Shown: in pieces, positions 42,441 to 50,908 of the stretch | Position numbering within the stretch: position 1 is the first letter of the stretch | Layout of the letters: each line of letters opens with the position of its first letter | DNA from: Microcaldota archaeon | Lineage (GTDB): Archaea; Micrarchaeota; Micrarchaeia; Micrarchaeales; Micrarchaeaceae | Length of the DNA stretch: 64,000 nucleotides | Assembly: GCA_021810105.1 (NCBI GenBank) | Contig: JAJZJM010000001.1 | Location: 124,001 to 188,000, forward strand | Direction of reading: 5' to 3' | Position numbers and translations under genes: made by a program | Notes under the pieces: model-generated | What the model saw: only the letters and a program-made list of their open reading frames with translations | What the model was told of the DNA's origin: nothing | The model's database searches: none

Positions 42441-42469
42441 AAAATAAAAAGACGGAGAAGAAGTTTGCA
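42441..42469 (-). promoter_or_regulatory. 23S processing stem, 3' arm, with T-rich terminator
   Basis: GGAGAAGAAGTTTGCA (42454-42469, plus strand) is the exact reverse complement of 45305-45320. The two arms would pair around the whole 23S transcript. Just beyond it the minus-strand transcript runs into GTCTTTTTATTT, a likely terminator. Confidence 0.8.
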
Positions 42470-45304
<2,835 letters not shown>

Positions 45305-45495
45305 TGCAAACTTCTTCTCCTCGAATCAATCGCCAAACAGGCGATCTCACAAATGCAGCAAGAGAGATTATGGACTCTGTTAACGTATTTTCATCAAGCA
45401 GAAAAAAGCCTTCAAATACAGAAAAGAGCCTATAAGAGCTCAGTTGCCATAATAGCACCGAGCTATTATAATGTAGAATAAGGTATAAATAGGTT
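45305..45495 (-). promoter_or_regulatory. 23S leader, processing arm and promoter
   Basis: TGCAAACTTCTTCTCC (45305-45320) is the 5' arm of the processing stem. About 165 bases upstream a TATA-like element, read on the plus strand as GGTATAAATAGG (45482-45493), is placed to drive the rRNA. A leader hairpin with GAGCTC and GCTCGG elements lies between. Confidence 0.6.
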
Positions 45496-45509: not shown

Positions 45510-46060
45510 CTATTCTTTTCCTGCCATAGATAATACCTCATCGAGTGCTGGTTGTAGATCCCTTATGCCTGCTTCGTCTTTTATGTGCGATAGGGAGTGC
45601 TCAACTATTATCTTGGCGCTTAGTTCCTTTTTGAATATATCTGCCTCAGAAAGTGCGACAAAAAGATCATCATCAGAGAATATAGCGGTGATTTTGCACG
45701 TAGGCACATGGTTCCGTATAGCCTTCCAATCGATTGGTGTTTCAATCCATGGCTTTGCTATCTCACGGTCTTCTGGGGCCTCATATGCCGCCTCTGTTAG
45801 ATGTATCCACGGTGCCACAAGAATCACACACCCCCACTTGCAGTCCATGTTGCAATGTGGTGAGATATCTAAGCACGGCCTGGCATCCTATACTATGGCC
45901 TATAAATATTGTTTCTGGGTCTGGCTTTCCAACAATATCGGCTAGATGTTTAATCCATGCATAGATCTTCGGTTTAGCAGAATCGGGCATCAAAGGTGCA
46001 CCAAGGATTTCAACGTGAAAAAGTTCGAAAGGATGGGCTTTGAAAAGAAGATGAATTTCA
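45510..46060 (-). pseudogene. RBBP9/YdeN-type serine hydrolase, truncated and frameshifted
   Basis: Minus-strand reading gives FELFHVEILGAPLMPDSAKP and then ETIFIGHSIGCQAVLRYL, which holds the nucleophile motif GHSIG. The frame shifts near 45830 and continues as CVILVAPWIHLTEAAYEA, FSDDDLFVAL (acid residue) and a His region (VEHSLSHIKDEAGI). Homologues start about 25 residues earlier with an HGW/HGT motif and NWFPWL, which are missing here. The break lies at the stop of the next gene (46079), as if that DNA had replaced the 5' end. Confidence 0.75.
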
Positions 46061-46078: not shown

Positions 46079-47296
46079 CTATATGCTTTCAGAATTGATT
46101 ATTATTCTTTCGAACTTGGTTCTAGGTTTTGTATCTGTTGTTACAAGCCCAGCTCCACGCAATTTGTTTACATAGGAACTTACATTGCTTAACTGCATGC
46201 TGGTTTTTTTTGCTATTTCTGACAAGGTCATTTCGCCATTGCAACACGCCAAAACTTTCAGCACAGCCTTGCTCTTTAACAAAATGCTCATCTCCAAAAA
46301 TTTTAACTTCGAGTCTATAACAATTTCTTTTCTCTTTATTAGTGTCTCGCTGTTTGTCCTGCTCGCAACACTGTTCAGTATACTGTAAAGATAACCCGAG
46401 ATATGCTCCACGTCAAATTTAGGCTTTTTTATCAGCGTTGTTCTTATGCCTAACTTCGAAAAGAATGCAAACAATGGCATTATTATGTTTTTATAAAGCT
46501 CAGCGTAGTCGGTCTGCTTTAAATCTAACTTTTGTAATATGTTCTTTATTTCTTCTGTGCTGTTTCCACACATCGGCAAATTGTCATTGTATGAAATAAA
46601 GGGAACATGTTTCATTTTTAAGATTATCGGTGTCTGTATGCCTTTTGATAAGGTATATGTACTCTCTGACAGTATATCCCTCAGTCTGGTGTAGGCCTGT
46701 GCCCGTTCACTGGATGTTATGAAAAACAACGGGTTGCCCTCATCCTTCTTGTACAATTTGGAGAAATTTTTCGCAATGTAAATATCAAACGGCCTCTGGA
46801 AAATGTGATGCGCCCCGCTATAGAAATTCTTATCTTTTGAATACAGATCAAAAGTTATTTCACTGAGGAAACTGTAAAACCCAAAAAATTCGGTTTTATT
46901 TTGTGCGCAGGCAAACCACGCATCGGAAGCCTTAAATATATCTACATTTTCAACATTGGCACCCATGACTTTCAATAAAAGCTCTATTTCCTCCAATATC
47001 TGTTCGACATACCTTGCAAGAGAGGTATTATTCTTCGAAAGGAGGTTCCTTCTCACCCTTTGATGTATGATAAAATTGTTGTCATGCAATACGATGGAAA
47101 CCTTATGCCCCAAATTCGTAAGCGCCGATATGAGAGAAAGGGCATGTATCGAGAGGTAATTCGGTGTTATATAAGTTATCGGAATTATAAAATGCGTTTT
47201 ACCGGCAATTTTCTCAACATCAAAGCGCTCTCCGTTATCGTAGTTTGTCATACCCTCTTTGACATAATCCGTATAGAAATGCTCCAAAGTACCCAT
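46079..47296 (-). CDS. Unknown protein: Rossmann-like N-terminus and C-terminal winged helix
   Basis: About 405 residues. The N-terminal third looks alpha/beta (THFIIPITYITPNYLSIHAL then NLGHKVSIVLHDNN), like a nucleotide-binding or HUP-type fold, but no HIGH/KMSKS motif or Walker motif is present. The middle is mostly helical. Residues about 345-400 form a winged helix (LKVLACCNGEMTLSEIAKKT, LSNVSSYVNKLRGAGLV). ATG 47296 fits a leaderless start from ATAAATATAAC; TTG 47308 and GTG 47305 are alternatives. It is divergent from the radical SAM operon and shares its promoter region, so it may regulate it. No family recognised. Confidence 0.65.
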   Translation of the reverse strand: MGTLEHFYTDYVKEGMTNYDNGERFDVEKIAGKTHFIIPITYITPNYLSIHALSLISALTNLGHKVSIVLHDNNFIIHQRVRRNLLSKNNTSLARYVEQILEEIELLLKVMGANVENVDIFKASDAWFACAQNKTEFFGFYSFLSEITFDLYSKDKNFYSGAHHIFQRPFDIYIAKNFSKLYKKDEGNPLFFITSSERAQAYTRLRDILSESTYTLSKGIQTPIILKMKHVPFISYNDNLPMCGNSTEEIKNILQKLDLKQTDYAELYKNIIMPLFAFFSKLGIRTTLIKKPKFDVEHISGYLYSILNSVASRTNSETLIKRKEIVIDSKLKFLEMSILLKSKAVLKVLACCNGEMTLSEIAKKTSMQLSNVSSYVNKLRGAGLVTTDTKPRTKFERIIINSESI

Positions 47297-47308
47297 ATAG
47301 TCCACCAA

Positions 47309-47389
47309 ATTGTTATATTTATTGTATAAGTTATATATTATAACAAATATAAATATATATTACATACAGTGTATACTTTTCTGGATGGA
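47309..47389. promoter_or_regulatory. Divergent promoter of the radical SAM island
   Basis: Very AT-rich. GTTATA and TATAAC arms around TAT (47330-47344) form an inverted repeat between two TATA-like elements, one toward the HTH protein (near 47317-47327, minus) and one toward the operon (AATATAAATATATA, about 47346-47360, plus). It is a candidate shared operator. Confidence 0.5.
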
Positions 47390-48400
47390 ATGGAGAGCGC
47401 AATGGAGTTGATGGTTCAGCAAAAAAAGCACAAATCTTCGCTGGTGAACATAAGAATAGACAAAACCGTACCTACCGGCACACCGGTGCTTAGACGATTA
47501 TGTAATGAGAATTGTAATTTTGACAGCCGATTAAACATCAAATGCCACGAAGATAACTCGTACAGAGCTGTTTTTGGCCAGAACGCCATAGGTAATGAAG
47601 GTTTTGTAGGTATTGTGAGCCGAATCGCCGCGGTAAGTCGTAGGCGGACAAGCATCCACATCGCTGGTGACGGTGAACCAACCCTATTCGAAGAGGAATT
47701 ACTTGATCTGGTATCAAGGCTTAAGGCCCTTAGTGATGTGGAAAGCATAAAAATAACAACAAACGGCACAAGATTGAGTGGAGGTCAGCCAACCCTTGCT
47801 GCGAGACTGAAATCCGCTTCCGTAGATGGTCTGAACATTTCAATTCACTCGCTTACCAGGGAGGGTTTTAGGGAGGTCACACACATCGACGCACTACACC
47901 TCGCTTTAGCGGGTCTGGATGCCGCTGTAAATGCTGGCCTGTACGTGAGTGTGAACTGCGTAGTTAGAGATCAGACCTTTGAGGAGGTGGATAACTACAT
48001 AAAATTATCTATTGAAAAGGGGGTTAAAATCAAATTTTTCTGCATGCTCTCTGAGAACCAGGAAGCTCAGGAATACGCATATTCGTTGGTCGACAGACTT
48101 GACAAGGTCCTCACCCAAAAGGCGGATTCCATTGGCCATTATGTGTTGCCGTACGCTGGGAAAATATTTAAGATTGGAAAGGCCATAGTGGAGCTTAAGG
48201 ACACCAGGATTAATAGCTGCCCAAACACAAAATGTGTGGTCAGAACCCGTTGCACAGAGGGTTGCAGATATCACGTAAGGATCACGCCTACTGGTGTTAT
48301 ACAACCATGCGGTATAAGAACGGATAACCTAGTCAAATTTACGACTGAGGTTACCGATGGCGAGATATTCAATGCATTAAGAAGCGGAGGTAAAGTTTAG
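47390..48400 (+). CDS. MoaA-like radical SAM enzyme with CX3CX9C motif
   Basis: About 336 residues from ATG 47390 (GTG 47369 possible). The cluster motif reads LCNENCNFDSRLNIKCHEDN: two cysteines spaced as usual, but the third comes ten residues after the second, as if seven residues were inserted before the common CHxE. HIAGDGEPTLFEEEL replaces the usual GGEP loop, and IKITTNGTRLSG and LNISIHSLTREGFREV follow. The C-terminal CPNTKC, then CTEGCRYHVRITPTGVIQPC, resembles the auxiliary 4Fe-4S site of MoaA. First gene of a four-gene operon with 8-base and smaller gaps. Substrate unknown. ATA dominates isoleucine codons less than in neighbouring genes. Confidence 0.75.
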   Translation: MESAMELMVQQKKHKSSLVNIRIDKTVPTGTPVLRRLCNENCNFDSRLNIKCHEDNSYRAVFGQNAIGNEGFVGIVSRIAAVSRRRTSIHIAGDGEPTLFEEELLDLVSRLKALSDVESIKITTNGTRLSGGQPTLAARLKSASVDGLNISIHSLTREGFREVTHIDALHLALAGLDAAVNAGLYVSVNCVVRDQTFEEVDNYIKLSIEKGVKIKFFCMLSENQEAQEYAYSLVDRLDKVLTQKADSIGHYVLPYAGKIFKIGKAIVELKDTRINSCPNTKCVVRTRCTEGCRYHVRITPTGVIQPCGIRTDNLVKFTTEVTDGEIFNALRSGGKV

Positions 48401-48408
48401 GTGAGATT

Positions 48409-48939
48409 ATGATAGAAATAGAGACAAAAATAGTAGATTTTGACGTAAACAGACTGAGAGCGAAACTTAAGCAACGGGGTGCGGCCAGTTCTGGCGAAAT
48501 ACTGCAAAGAAGATGGATTTTTAATTTATCCAAGAATGAGGGCGAGGACGAATTCATAAGGGTCAGGACCGACGGTAAAAAATGTACAATCGCATACAAG
48601 CACAGGAAGGGCGATAAGCTCGGGAATACCGAAGAAATTGAGGTGTCAACGGACGACTTCGATAGCTCCGCAGAAATATTTTCGAAGTTTATCAAAGACA
48701 AGAAATACCAGGAAAATAAAAGGGAAACCTTCATACTCGGCGAGGTGGAAATAACCATCAACAGGTGGCCTATGATCGCGCCGGTTGTGGAGATAGAAGC
48801 GTCCAGCGAAAAGAAGGTAAGAGACACAATAAAGGAATTGGATATTGGCGGTAGAGAGCTGGGCAATATCGGATGGGAAAAGCTCTACAAGCAATATGGA
48901 ATAGATTTGAATGCGTATGAAGTCTTAAAATTCAAATGA
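48409..48939 (+). CDS. CYTH-domain protein (class IV cyclase / triphosphatase)
   Basis: About 176 residues. It opens with the diagnostic ExExK motif (MIEIETKIVDFD), followed by alternating charged strands (FIRVRTDGKKCTIAYKHRKG, EEIEVSTDDF, RETFILGEVEITINRWP, APVVEIEAS), as expected for the eight-stranded tunnel that binds triphosphates with metal ions. Known members hydrolyse inorganic or organic triphosphates or make cAMP; which applies cannot be told from sequence. Second gene of the island operon. Confidence 0.85.
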   Translation: MIEIETKIVDFDVNRLRAKLKQRGAASSGEILQRRWIFNLSKNEGEDEFIRVRTDGKKCTIAYKHRKGDKLGNTEEIEVSTDDFDSSAEIFSKFIKDKKYQENKRETFILGEVEITINRWPMIAPVVEIEASSEKKVRDTIKELDIGGRELGNIGWEKLYKQYGIDLNAYEVLKFK

Positions 48940-48943
48940 TTTT

Positions 48944-49585
48944 ATGGTAGTGATATCGATAGATGGTGTGGACGGCGCGGGGAAAACAACAGTAGCAGCA
49001 TTACTCGCAAGTGCTATTCCAGCAGAAGTGGTGAAAACCCCGCTAAAGGAATTTTTGCCCGACATTAAGAGCTTTCTGGATAACAGTCCTGAGAACACGC
49101 TTGCGCGTTTCGTATATTTCATGTGTGGGAACAAGCACGCATGCGACGTCTTGACACTGAGATACAATGGAAGCCTATCCGAGCAAAATATAGTTTTTGA
49201 TAGGTACAAATATTCAACCTTAGCCACGCACCTTGCTCTAGATGAGATGTTTTCCGGAGGTGTAAATATAGCACGCCTCCATCAAATCGCAGATAAGACC
49301 AGTGAAGCGCTCATGAAGCCCGACCTTATTGTATTTTTGTACGTCGATTATGATGTAAAAACACAGAGAATTACGCTGAGAAAGAATCCAGCAGATACAA
49401 AACTTGATAACAATAAACAATTCTCAGAAAGAACTGAAACTCAACTTAGATCTTTGGCTAGAAGTCTTAGGGCTGAAGGAGTTAATGTACTTGAACTTGA
49501 TACAACAAAAGAGAGTCCCGAAGCCATAAGAGACGCAATAATTGCGGCTGTGCCAAATAGGGTAAGGCTTATTGCTAGAACCTAG
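48944..49585 (+). CDS. Thymidylate-kinase-like P-loop nucleotide kinase
   Basis: About 213 residues. Walker A is SIDGVDGAGKTTVAALL at the N-terminus, the DRY-type motif is IVFDRYKYSTLATHLAL near 90, and a lid-like region is KTQRITLRKNPADTKLD near 147. The fold is that of dTMP kinases, but the usual FxREP segment after the P-loop is replaced by VVKTPLKEFLP, so the phosphate acceptor may differ from dTMP. Spacing of four bases from the CYTH gene indicates coupling. Confidence 0.8.
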   Translation: MVVISIDGVDGAGKTTVAALLASAIPAEVVKTPLKEFLPDIKSFLDNSPENTLARFVYFMCGNKHACDVLTLRYNGSLSEQNIVFDRYKYSTLATHLALDEMFSGGVNIARLHQIADKTSEALMKPDLIVFLYVDYDVKTQRITLRKNPADTKLDNNKQFSERTETQLRSLARSLRAEGVNVLELDTTKESPEAIRDAIIAAVPNRVRLIART

Positions 49586-49596
49586 GTGTATTACAA

Positions 49597-49941
49597 ATGG
49601 TTTTTTGTCAAAAATGTCACGCTTTGCTAAGACCAAGCATAGATGGGGAGTCTGTCATTAGCAAGTGCCTGCGCTGCGATTACAGTGAAACAAAGCCATT
49701 AACAAACGTAGAACCGCCGCAAGTTGTACTAAGGGCAGAGGTTTTGAACGGAGCTACAAATAGATTCATTTATGATTCAACTCGGGAAAATGTAGATCAC
49801 CATTGTGACTTTTGTGGGAATGACAAGGCCTATGCAGGAGAGATAAAGCCCAACCGGTTCAACGATGAGCAGAGCGTTTTTACATTCACATGCACTGATT
49901 GTGGCAAAACAACGAGGGAATACTCTTCAGGTAGTGGTTAG
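49597..49941 (+). CDS. TFS/TFIIS-like transcript cleavage factor
   Basis: About 114 residues with two zinc ribbons. The N-terminal one is FCQKCHALLRPS with CLRCDYSE. The C-terminal one is HHCDFCGNDKAYAGEI, then FNDEQSVFTFTCTDCGKT. The acidic pair DE at the ribbon tip, which in TFS/TFIIS reaches the polymerase active site, is present, so RNA cleavage activity is plausible. It ends the operon, 11 bases after the kinase. Whether the genome has another TFS elsewhere cannot be seen, but location in an island suggests a specialised paralogue, as with the virus-induced TFS4 of Sulfolobus. Confidence 0.83.
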   Translation: MVFCQKCHALLRPSIDGESVISKCLRCDYSETKPLTNVEPPQVVLRAEVLNGATNRFIYDSTRENVDHHCDFCGNDKAYAGEIKPNRFNDEQSVFTFTCTDCGKTTREYSSGSG

Positions 49942-49959
49942 AAATAAAGAATATTGGTG

Positions 49960-50335
49960 TTATGTCTCTTCGTCTATGTACTTGGAACGGAACTTCATGA
50001 AATATTCCTAAAGCTCTACGGTCGTATATGACGTGGCATTTATCCCATGTTTCTTCGTATCGTTTTCGTCGATAAGACGTTTCATTTTCCTCTTCGTCTT
50101 CTTTTGTGATTGAGGGAGGCCGGCCGCTTCGCGGTTTATCCGAAACACTCTCTTCCGTTACCCACTTCTTTATCCAGTCGTAGGCCGTAGACTCTTCGAC
50201 ATCTACGAATTTTGCAGCCTCTGCAACACTGAAACCTCTGCTCGCCGCATAGAGTGTCATATGCTGTGTTTTTTCTTTCGCATCTTTACAGTTTCTGTAC
50301 CGTTCTCTAAGGGTGTTGGAGTCGTTTTCCAACAT
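49960..50335 (-). mobile_element. IS630-type transposase N-terminal remnant
   Basis: The first ~80 codons (start 50335) encode an IS630-style HTH: SRGFSVAEAAKFVDVEESTA, YDWIKKWVTEE and KPRSGRPPSITKEDE. The frame then shifts, and the continuing product can be read as MKRLIDENDTKKHGINATSY, TTVEL, a stop, EYFMKFRSKYIDEET. One frameshift and one stop mark it as dead. The DDE catalytic part is missing. Confidence 0.75.
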
Positions 50336-50510: not shown

Positions 50511-50908
50511 GCTTCGTCTTCCGCGCTTGCACTTCTGGTAGGTATTACAACTGTTGGGGATTTGCCTCCTTTTGAGCCCACATATTTTATAGCCGTGCCT
50601 ATGGCAGTTATCTCCATCCATTCGTTGTTGTGGAGGTACTGGACCTTTAGCTTTACTCCTATTACACCATCAGCTCCGAGCTTTTCAGCCTCTGCCTGCA
50701 TCCTGCCCAATGCCATCTCCCTTGCATTGTACATTAGCTCTGTTATCTGCGTTAGCTCTCCCTTTGCCATTCCTTTTATACCTGTTGCTATCCCCCCGGC
50801 TACACCCATACTGTAAACAGAGTTTCCCAGCACCAGCGCTACAGGCATATAACCCGCATCTTTTAGCAACCAGAAATCGCTTGTTGATATGTCGCTTGTG
50901 AATGCCAT
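50507..50908 (-). CDS. YbjQ/UPF0145 family protein
   Basis: About 133 residues. Family pattern: ALVLGNSVYSMGVAGGIATG, then ELTQITELMYNAREMALGRM, AEKLGADGVIGVKLKV and ITAIGTAIKYV. The N-terminus differs from short YbjQ by an extra STSDFWLLKDAGYMPV segment. These proteins form pentamers of unknown function, once annotated as heavy-metal-binding. Single gene on the minus strand. Confidence 0.85.
   Translation of the reverse strand: MAFTSDISTSDFWLLKDAGYMPVALVLGNSVYSMGVAGGIATGIKGMAKGELTQITELMYNAREMALGRMQAEAEKLGADGVIGVKLKVQYLHNNEWMEITAIGTAIKYVGSKGGKSPTVVIPTRSASAEDEA

What the first reader, a model, noticed from the sequence alone, without database searches (positions are those of the whole stretch)
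47390..48400. Radical SAM enzyme with CX3CX9C cluster spacing
The motif CNENCNFDSRLNIKCHEDN has the first two cysteines normally spaced, but the third follows nine residues after the second. Aligning CHED with the common CHxE suggests a seven-residue insertion inside the cluster loop. The GGEP loop reads GDGEP. The C-terminal auxiliary-cluster cysteines are kept, so it is unlikely to be a dead gene.
Basis: seen in the sequence. Interest (0 to 1): 0.55.

Follow-up and report, generated by a model that had tools for sequence, protein, structure and literature searches.

The report
Radical enzyme with stretched cluster loop
In a group of tiny archaea, a radical-forming enzyme carries seven extra amino acids in the loop that normally holds its iron-sulfur cluster, and it travels between lineages with genes for nucleotide handling, so it probably makes an unknown modified nucleotide.

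Summary
The gene at 47369/47390-48400 encodes a MoaA-fold radical SAM protein with motif CX3CX9C: seven residues (47522-47542) inserted before the third cysteine. It is not an error: 10 of 10 copies in which the loop can be read (41-91% identity, Micrarchaeota genomes) have exactly CX3CX9C, while seven relatives outside the clade have CX3CX2C. Against a 90%-identical copy from another family, the 21 loop codons show 6 synonymous and 0 non-synonymous differences. 'GDGEP' and five C-terminal cysteines are invariant in 9 of 9 full-length copies. It is not MoaA: scores lie far below MoaA cut-offs, auxiliary spacing differs, no MoaC in 301 phylum genomes. It lies in a patchy, horizontally moved cassette with a CYTH triphosphate-tunnel protein and a thymidylate-kinase-like protein (or a uridine-kinase-like protein and Nudix), plus a divergent TyrRS-like winged-helix regulator. 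Some canonical relatives keep similar company (kinase-rSAM-CYTH; an rSAM-CYTH fusion). Best reading: an active radical SAM enzyme with an extended cluster loop acting on a nucleoside or nucleotide; substrate and loop role are inferred. My searches of the held library found no CX3CX9C radical SAM enzyme.

The parts
47369..48400 (+). MoaA-like radical SAM protein with CX3CX9C motif (likely start ATG 47390)
   Evidence: MoaA fold, Z 23.2, rmsd 3.0 over 275 residues
47501..47545 (+). cluster loop CNENCNFDSRLNIKC; cysteine codons at 47501, 47513, 47543
   Evidence: sequence; cysteines and Phe invariant in 9 of 9
47522..47542 (+). 21-nt, 7-residue insertion DSRLNIK relative to CX3CX2C relatives
47657..47680 (+). 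HIAGDGEP loop (GGEP position)
   Evidence: invariant in 9 of 9
48218..48310 (+). auxiliary-cluster region, five invariant cysteines CX4CX5CX3CX14C
48409..48939 (+). CYTH / triphosphate tunnel metalloenzyme-like protein
   Evidence: cyaB 36.9 bits, below its cut-off 57.95; profile of 7 family members matches archaeal TTM Saci_0718, E 1.5e-6; 5 of 7 members hit Pfam CYTH at E 0.01, the window copy does not
48944..49585 (+). thymidylate-kinase-like P-loop kinase (paralogue; a dTMP kinase above cut-off lies elsewhere in the genome)
   Evidence: PF02223 53.7 bits; TIGR00041 52.5 bits against cut-off 83.25 whereas G000:C5 scores 161.9; PADLOC: PDC-M51B E 4.4e-20, VakA E 2.1e-14
49597..49941 (+). small zinc-ribbon-like protein, found in 4 of 11 family loci
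   Evidence: Pfam matches weak, all under cut-off; homologues
46079..47308 (-). divergent regulator: TyrRS-like domain plus C-terminal winged helix-turn-helix
   Evidence: Foldseek to TyrRS E 1.8e-9, Z 15.2; HTH_IclR 30.3 bits, cut-off 22

Best explanation
A functional radical SAM enzyme of the MoaA-like branch whose cluster loop was lengthened, most simply once in an ancestor of a Micrarchaeota clade, by seven residues between the aromatic residue of the CXF step and the third cluster cysteine, together with a change of the neighbouring loop (GGEP to GDGEP). The three cysteines still hold a site-differentiated [4Fe-4S] cluster and the bound SAM gives a 5'-deoxyadenosyl radical; the extra loop most likely reshapes the pocket above the cluster or a docking surface. 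The enzyme works on a nucleoside or nucleotide whose phosphates are handled by the partner proteins (TMK-like, PRK-like or PfkB-like kinase; CYTH or Nudix hydrolase), and the TyrRS-like winged-helix protein probably senses product or substrate and controls the divergent operon. The cassette moves between lineages. Shown: motif, conservation, selection, predicted fold, neighbourhood, transfer of at least one copy. Inferred: cluster binding, SAM chemistry, nucleotide substrate, role of the loop, regulation.
For: CX3CX9C in 10 of 10 readable copies; clade support 100/98 in a 20-row tree; dN/dS 0.065 and no amino-acid change in the loop; MoaA fold. Neighbours over 11 family loci: CYTH 7, TMK-like 5, PRK-type kinase 3, TyrRS-like regulator 7, Nudix 3, zinc-ribbon-like 4, PfkB 2. 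Control: of 13 other loci hit by the broader profile (up to 1.5 kb each side), CYTH 0 and TMK-like 1; counting also G019, G133 and G239, which I name as relatives, CYTH 2 and TMK-like 2 of 16. Canonical-motif relatives with such partners: G019 TMK-rSAM-CYTH, G133 rSAM-CYTH fusion, G136 TMK-rSAM-PfkB, G239 rSAM-Nudix. Transfer: rSAM 90% identical between G000 and G040 of another family, TruD only 48%; no match in the eight same-genus genomes, 57-93% complete.
Against: No biochemistry. Both altered loops are modelled with pLDDT under 50, so cluster competence is not shown. The Pfam match begins after the loop (position 37 of 166). Gene neighbourhood suggests but does not prove the substrate class. 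Two copies are decayed (G027 broken, G263 truncated), so the function is dispensable. G185 has no kinase or CYTH beside the rSAM gene, only the regulator and a Nudix protein. Outgroup branches in the tree are long and some joins may be false. The G136 contig also carries DnaA_N, GreA and IS110 genes and its bin has 6% contamination, so that relative is probably bacterial.
Confidence: 0.6

Rival explanations
1. A pseudo-radical-SAM protein: the barrel fold is kept for binding or regulation, the lengthened loop no longer supports SAM cleavage.
For: Weak matches to the haloarchaeal pseudo-SAM/SPASM family TIGR04347 (24.1 bits for the window protein, 51.1 and 42.2 for G024 and G044; cut-off 525); loop unmodelled.
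Against: All three motif cysteines, the CXF aromatic residue, GDGEP and five auxiliary cysteines invariant in 9 of 9; strong purifying selection between two copies. Pseudo-enzymes usually lose cysteines (recalled).
Confidence: 0.15
2. An active radical SAM enzyme on a peptide, lipid or other non-nucleotide substrate; the kinases and CYTH are bystanders of a metabolic island.
For: SuiB, SkfB, AbmM and a tetraether synthase rank just below MoaA in the fold list; one family locus lacks kinase and CYTH.
Against: Kinase, CYTH or Nudix recurs beside canonical and non-canonical members, and one relative is fused to CYTH. I noticed no small precursor-like ORF beside it, but did not search for one.
Confidence: 0.2
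3. A GTP 3',8-cyclase (MoaA) making a molybdopterin precursor.
For: Best family match is MoaA (94.9 bits); MoaA is the top fold match; an invariant Arg aligns with the Arg of the RLT..G segment of the L036 MoaA.
Against: Scores below the MoaA cut-offs of 231-325 bits; MoaC in 0 of 301 phylum genomes, control positive in 11 of 14; auxiliary spacing not CX2CX13C; no terminal -GG.
Confidence: 0.04
4. Assembly error, intron or recoding: the seven codons are not part of the protein.
For: None beyond oddness.
Against: Same length and reading frame in 10 of 10 copies; only synonymous changes in it between window and G040.
Confidence: 0.01

Closest known systems
MoaA, GTP 3',8-cyclase (1tv7, 2fb2)
   Same: Fold (Z 22.7-23.2 over 275 residues) and best sequence-family match.
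   Different: CX3CX9C instead of CX3CX2C; GDGEP; five auxiliary cysteines instead of CX2CX13C (MoaA spacing from a passage of PMC5352715); no MoaC in the phylum genomes searched.
Canonical rSAM of G019, G133 and G136 (similar neighbours)
   Same: Kinase and/or CYTH partner; CNxxCx[F/W]CHxEG context; in G019 and G136 four of the five auxiliary cysteines align.
   Different: CX3CX2C, GGEP; 24-27% identity to the window protein. G136 is probably on a bacterial contig.
QueE with CX14CX2C (passage of PMC4389238)
   Same: A radical SAM enzyme with one lengthened cluster loop and, by that passage, an otherwise canonical cluster-binding motif.
   Different: Insertion between cysteines 1 and 2, here between 2 and 3; pterin-type substrate (recalled); no close relation tested.
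ThiC (CX2CX4C), PhnJ (CX2CX21CX5C), HmdB (CX5CX2C) (passage of PMC4389238)
   Same: Non-canonical cluster spacing.
   Different: Other spacings; ThiC and PhnJ place the motif near the C terminus.
Viperin / SAND with an associated nucleotide kinase
   Same: A thymidylate-kinase-family gene next to a radical SAM gene; kinase matches PADLOC VakA (E 2.1e-14; name read as viperin-associated kinase from recall), though PDC-M51B matches better (4.4e-20); rSAM matches pVip weakly (29.5 bits).
   Different: rSAM 24.1 bits against the viperin cut-off 180; CYTH and TyrRS-like regulator not part of that system (recalled).
Archaeal triphosphate tunnel metalloenzyme Saci_0718
   Same: The CYTH partner is a relative; reported to be a phosphohydrolase, not a cyclase (passage of PMC8646023).
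   Different: The terms radical SAM and thymidylate kinase do not occur in the main text of its paper PMC8233210 (word search).

Membership tests
Radical SAM superfamily | Sequence profile and barrel fold | tested here: met
   PF04055 43.3 bits, cut-off 29.5; fold matches of the predicted model
Radical SAM superfamily | CX3CX2C cluster motif | tested here: not met
   CX3CX9C in 10 of 10 readable copies; accepted exceptions exist
Radical SAM superfamily | [4Fe-4S] cluster and reductive SAM cleavage | not testable with these tools
   needs protein chemistry
MoaA (GTP 3',8-cyclase) | Score above the curated equivalog cut-offs | tested here: not met
   94.9/91.0/82.9 bits against 231/325.25/284.05
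MoaA (GTP 3',8-cyclase) | Auxiliary cluster motif CX2CX13C | tested here: not met
   five cysteines CX4CX5CX3CX14C in the window, invariant in 9 of 9
MoaA (GTP 3',8-cyclase) | C-terminal -GG tail (recalled) | tested here: not met
   the nine copies end in or run on past SGGK/DGGK (alignment); the MoaA of L036 ends in IGG
MoaA (GTP 3',8-cyclase) | Partner MoaC in the genome | tested here: not met
   0 of 301 genomes
Viperin / SAND | Score above curated cut-off | tested here: not met
   24.1 bits against 180
Viperin / SAND | Associated nucleotide-kinase gene (common, not universal; recalled) | tested here: met
   TMK-like in 5 of 11 loci, PRK-type in 3 of 11
dTMP kinase (the neighbour) | Score above curated cut-off | tested here: not met
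   52.5 bits against 83.25; another gene of the genome passes with 161.9
CYTH / TTM (the neighbour) | ExExK start and profile match | tested here: met
   EIETK invariant in 7 of 7 (motif recalled); profile to Saci_0718 E 1.5e-6; Pfam CYTH in 5 of 7 members, not the window copy, and no Pfam CYTH match in the own genome
TyrRS (the divergent regulator) | Class I catalytic motifs HIGH and KMSKS (recalled) | tested here: not met
   neither motif is conserved in the 6-row alignment A3; fold similar

The most novel reading that the evidence does not exclude
The family is a new class of radical SAM enzyme with a genuinely rebuilt cluster loop (CX3CX9C) that makes an unknown modified nucleotide, perhaps an antiviral chain terminator analogous to viperin's product or a signalling nucleotide, inside a mobile micrarchaeal cassette controlled by a TyrRS-derived transcription factor.
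Probability: 0.25. Interest if true: 0.75.

Novelty: new variant of a known kind. Interest (0 to 1): 0.5.

Why it matters
Few exceptions to CX3CX2C are known in radical SAM enzymes, and the Pfam profile skips the loop here. A family in which one insertion of fixed length separates the second and third cluster ligands, with canonical relatives in similar gene neighbourhoods for comparison, is a natural experiment on what the cluster loop does. The cassette also points to an unknown nucleotide chemistry in very small archaeal genomes, and to a TyrRS-fold protein that seems to have become a transcription regulator.

Tried and rejected
Rejected: Asp at the canonical third-cysteine place as ligand (the residue is D, S, V or I among the 10 copies, while the later Cys is kept in all). 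Rejected: intron, recoding or assembly error. Rejected: MoaA orthology. Led nowhere: structure of the loop (pLDDT under 50); viral contigs (59 pattern matches, 0 relatives); plasmids (no match); phages (two Enterococcus records, 31.6% over half the query, read as a general radical SAM likeness).

Literature: the three terms radical SAM, noncanonical and CX3CX9C together gave 0 papers. Five spellings (CX3CX9C, CxxxCx9C, C-X3-C-X9-C, CX3CX6C, CX3CX8C) gave 11 papers, seen as a listing only, whose titles concern antimicrobial peptides and other proteins, none a radical SAM enzyme. Three of the four terms CYTH, radical SAM, thymidylate kinase, archaea gave three papers, unrelated by title. Micrarchaeota, radical SAM and MoaA, two of three: 55 papers, 8 listed, none of the eight on this. 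The prokaryotic viperin paper PMC7610908 is not held, so statements on viperin kinases rest on PADLOC names and recall. GxGEP in place of GGEP occurs in other radical SAM families (recalled), so GDGEP alone is not strange.

The order of the canonical relatives in the tree is unsure: long branches meet. The fold search of the rSAM lists families that Foldseek ranked; absence from it means nothing.

Full report
What is there. The window lies in an 821-kb genome in 5 contigs (G000); close relatives are titled Candidatus Micrarchaeota. ORF 47369-48400 (+), with an ATG at 47390, encodes a radical SAM protein (Pfam PF04055, 43.3 bits, cut-off 29.5). It reads CNENCNFDSRLNIKCHEDN as reported. The Pfam match begins only at profile position 37 of 166, that is after the cluster loop.

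Is the spacing real? A search of 301 genomes of the phylum gave matches in 12 at E 1e-10 or better. One (G019) is a canonical relative; 11, the window's genome included, hold the family: nine full-length copies, one broken (G027), one C-terminal fragment (G263). All 10 in which the loop can be read have CX3CX9C; full-length copies are 43-91% identical to the window, the G027 pieces 41-49%. The inserted residues vary (DSRLNIK, DADTDGK, VKELGIA, DKKLGVA, SKNMAVA, DHATGAR, DYATGAK, DYATGAR, IKKLGIA) but never in length. The residue two after the second cysteine is Phe in all 10, and the third cysteine is followed by H or N and acidic residues, like the CHxEG context of nearer canonical relatives. 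So the third cysteine is the canonical one, moved out by seven residues. Between window and G040 the gene has 104.5 synonymous and 35.5 non-synonymous differences (dN/dS 0.065); 21 codons from the first cysteine on have 6 and 0; the seven inserted codons 2 and 0. This rules out decay and assembly error and makes an intron very unlikely.

Relatives with the normal motif. Seven relatives outside the clade have CX3CX2C and GGEP with a clean gap where the insertion is: G019, G133, G239, G072 and G144 from Micrarchaeota bins, G136, and a Chloroflexota MoaA (L036). The G136 contig also carries DnaA_N, GreA and IS110 genes and its bin has 6% contamination, so it is probably bacterial. A 20-row tree gives the CX3CX9C group as one side of a branch with support 100/98; other branches are long and their order is unsure. 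One gain is the simplest reading.

Fold and clusters. The AlphaFold2 model (mean pLDDT 80.7, pTM 0.83) has 34-53 (cluster loop) and 88-92 (DGEPT) under 50, so cluster geometry cannot be judged. The fold is MoaA's: Foldseek E 1.9e-13 to 1tv7; Z 23.2, rmsd 3.0 over 275 residues to 2fb2, other radical SAM enzymes at Z 17.5 and lower. Five cysteines of the C-terminal domain are invariant in 9 of 9; four of them align with cysteines of G019 and G136. MoaA has three, CX2CX13C, leaving an open iron (PMC5352715, passage). With four or five cysteines the auxiliary cluster here may be fully ligated (inference).

Not MoaA. MoaA models score 82.9-94.9 bits against cut-offs of 231-325; MoaC occurs in 0 of 301 genomes, while 11 of 14 control genomes have it.

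Neighbours. Window order: divergent regulator (46079-47308, -), rSAM, CYTH (48409-48939), TMK-like (48944-49585), zinc-ribbon-like (49597-49941). Over the 11 family loci: CYTH 7, TMK-like 5, PRK-type kinase 3, regulator 7, Nudix 3, zinc-ribbon-like 4, PfkB 2. Some contigs end inside the cassette (G040, G044, G185), so these are lower bounds. Of 13 other radical SAM loci found by a broader profile (up to 1.5 kb each side), none has CYTH and one (G136) a TMK-like gene. I left G019, G133 and G239 out of that control because I count them as relatives; with them it is CYTH 2 and TMK-like 2 of 16. Their company: G019 TMK-rSAM-CYTH; G133 rSAM fused to CYTH, beside a nucleoside-phosphorylase-type gene; G239 rSAM-Nudix; G136 TMK-rSAM-PfkB. 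A dTMP kinase above cut-off lies elsewhere in the genome (161.9 bits; the cassette copy 52.5, cut-off 83.25). The CYTH profile matches the archaeal tunnel enzyme Saci_0718, reported as a phosphohydrolase and not a cyclase (PMC8646023, passage).

The regulator. Its winged helix is clear. The rest of the model (mean pLDDT 73.2) resembles tyrosyl-tRNA synthetases (Foldseek E 1.8e-9; Z 15.2, rmsd 5.0 over 261 residues), without conserved HIGH or KMSKS (motifs recalled; alignment). Stretches 78-99, 131-135, 145-173 and 188-190 are under pLDDT 50, so this is a fold-level likeness.

Mobility. The rSAM is 90% identical in G040, a genome of another family, while TruD of the same pair is 48% identical. 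The similar block (85.4% over 2,858 nt) begins at the end of the regulator gene and runs to the end of the G040 contig. None of the eight same-genus genomes (57-93% complete) has a match. In G008 (TruD 80%) similarity to the window stops at 50514, right of the cassette, and the remaining 3 kb of that contig match nothing in the window; a transposase-type helix-turn-helix fragment lies at 49886-50335. A 23S rRNA gene lies to the left (42461-45313). The left junction in G008 was not found.

How it most likely works. A radical SAM enzyme with an intact set of ligands and a longer cluster loop, acting on a nucleoside or nucleotide that its partners phosphorylate and hydrolyse. What the loop does (pocket lid, cluster shield or docking surface) is open; [quoted passage not shown] Viperin-like production of an antiviral nucleotide is an attractive analogy because of the kinase (PADLOC VakA, E 2.1e-14, after PDC-M51B, 4.4e-20), but the rSAM is no viperin (24.1 bits, cut-off 180).

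Novelty. The passage read lists CX2CX4C, CX5CX2C, CX14CX2C and CX2CX21CX5C as exceptions; my searches of the held library found no CX3CX9C radical SAM enzyme. I call it a new variant of a known kind.

Noticed in passing
46079-47308 (-): Divergent gene combines a TyrRS-like domain lacking conserved HIGH/KMSKS with a C-terminal winged helix; present in 7 of 11 family loci. Looks like a synthetase-derived transcription regulator.
   Followed up: partly
L039:1468-2874: Canonical CX3CX2C radical SAM domain fused to a CYTH domain in genome G133, beside a nucleoside-phosphorylase-type gene.
   Followed up: partly
L025:10208-11239 (G027): Family copy broken into pieces in different frames, still with CX3CX9C, between a TMK-like gene and a CYTH gene.
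   Followed up: partly
L084:7808-10341 (G136): TMK-like, canonical radical SAM and PfkB genes in a row on a contig that also holds DnaA_N, GreA and IS110 genes: probably bacterial, binned with an archaeon.
   Followed up: partly
49886-50335 (-): Fragment with transposase-type helix-turn-helix (PF13551 over cut-off, PF01527 under it) at the right edge of the cassette, near where synteny with G008 breaks.
   Followed up: partly
42461-45313 (-): Full archaeal 23S rRNA gene; ARAGORN finds no tRNA gene in the 64-kb window.
   Followed up: no
45510-45848 (-): Short ORF between the 23S gene and the cassette that looks like a piece of a small serine hydrolase (recognised by eye, not tested).
   Followed up: no
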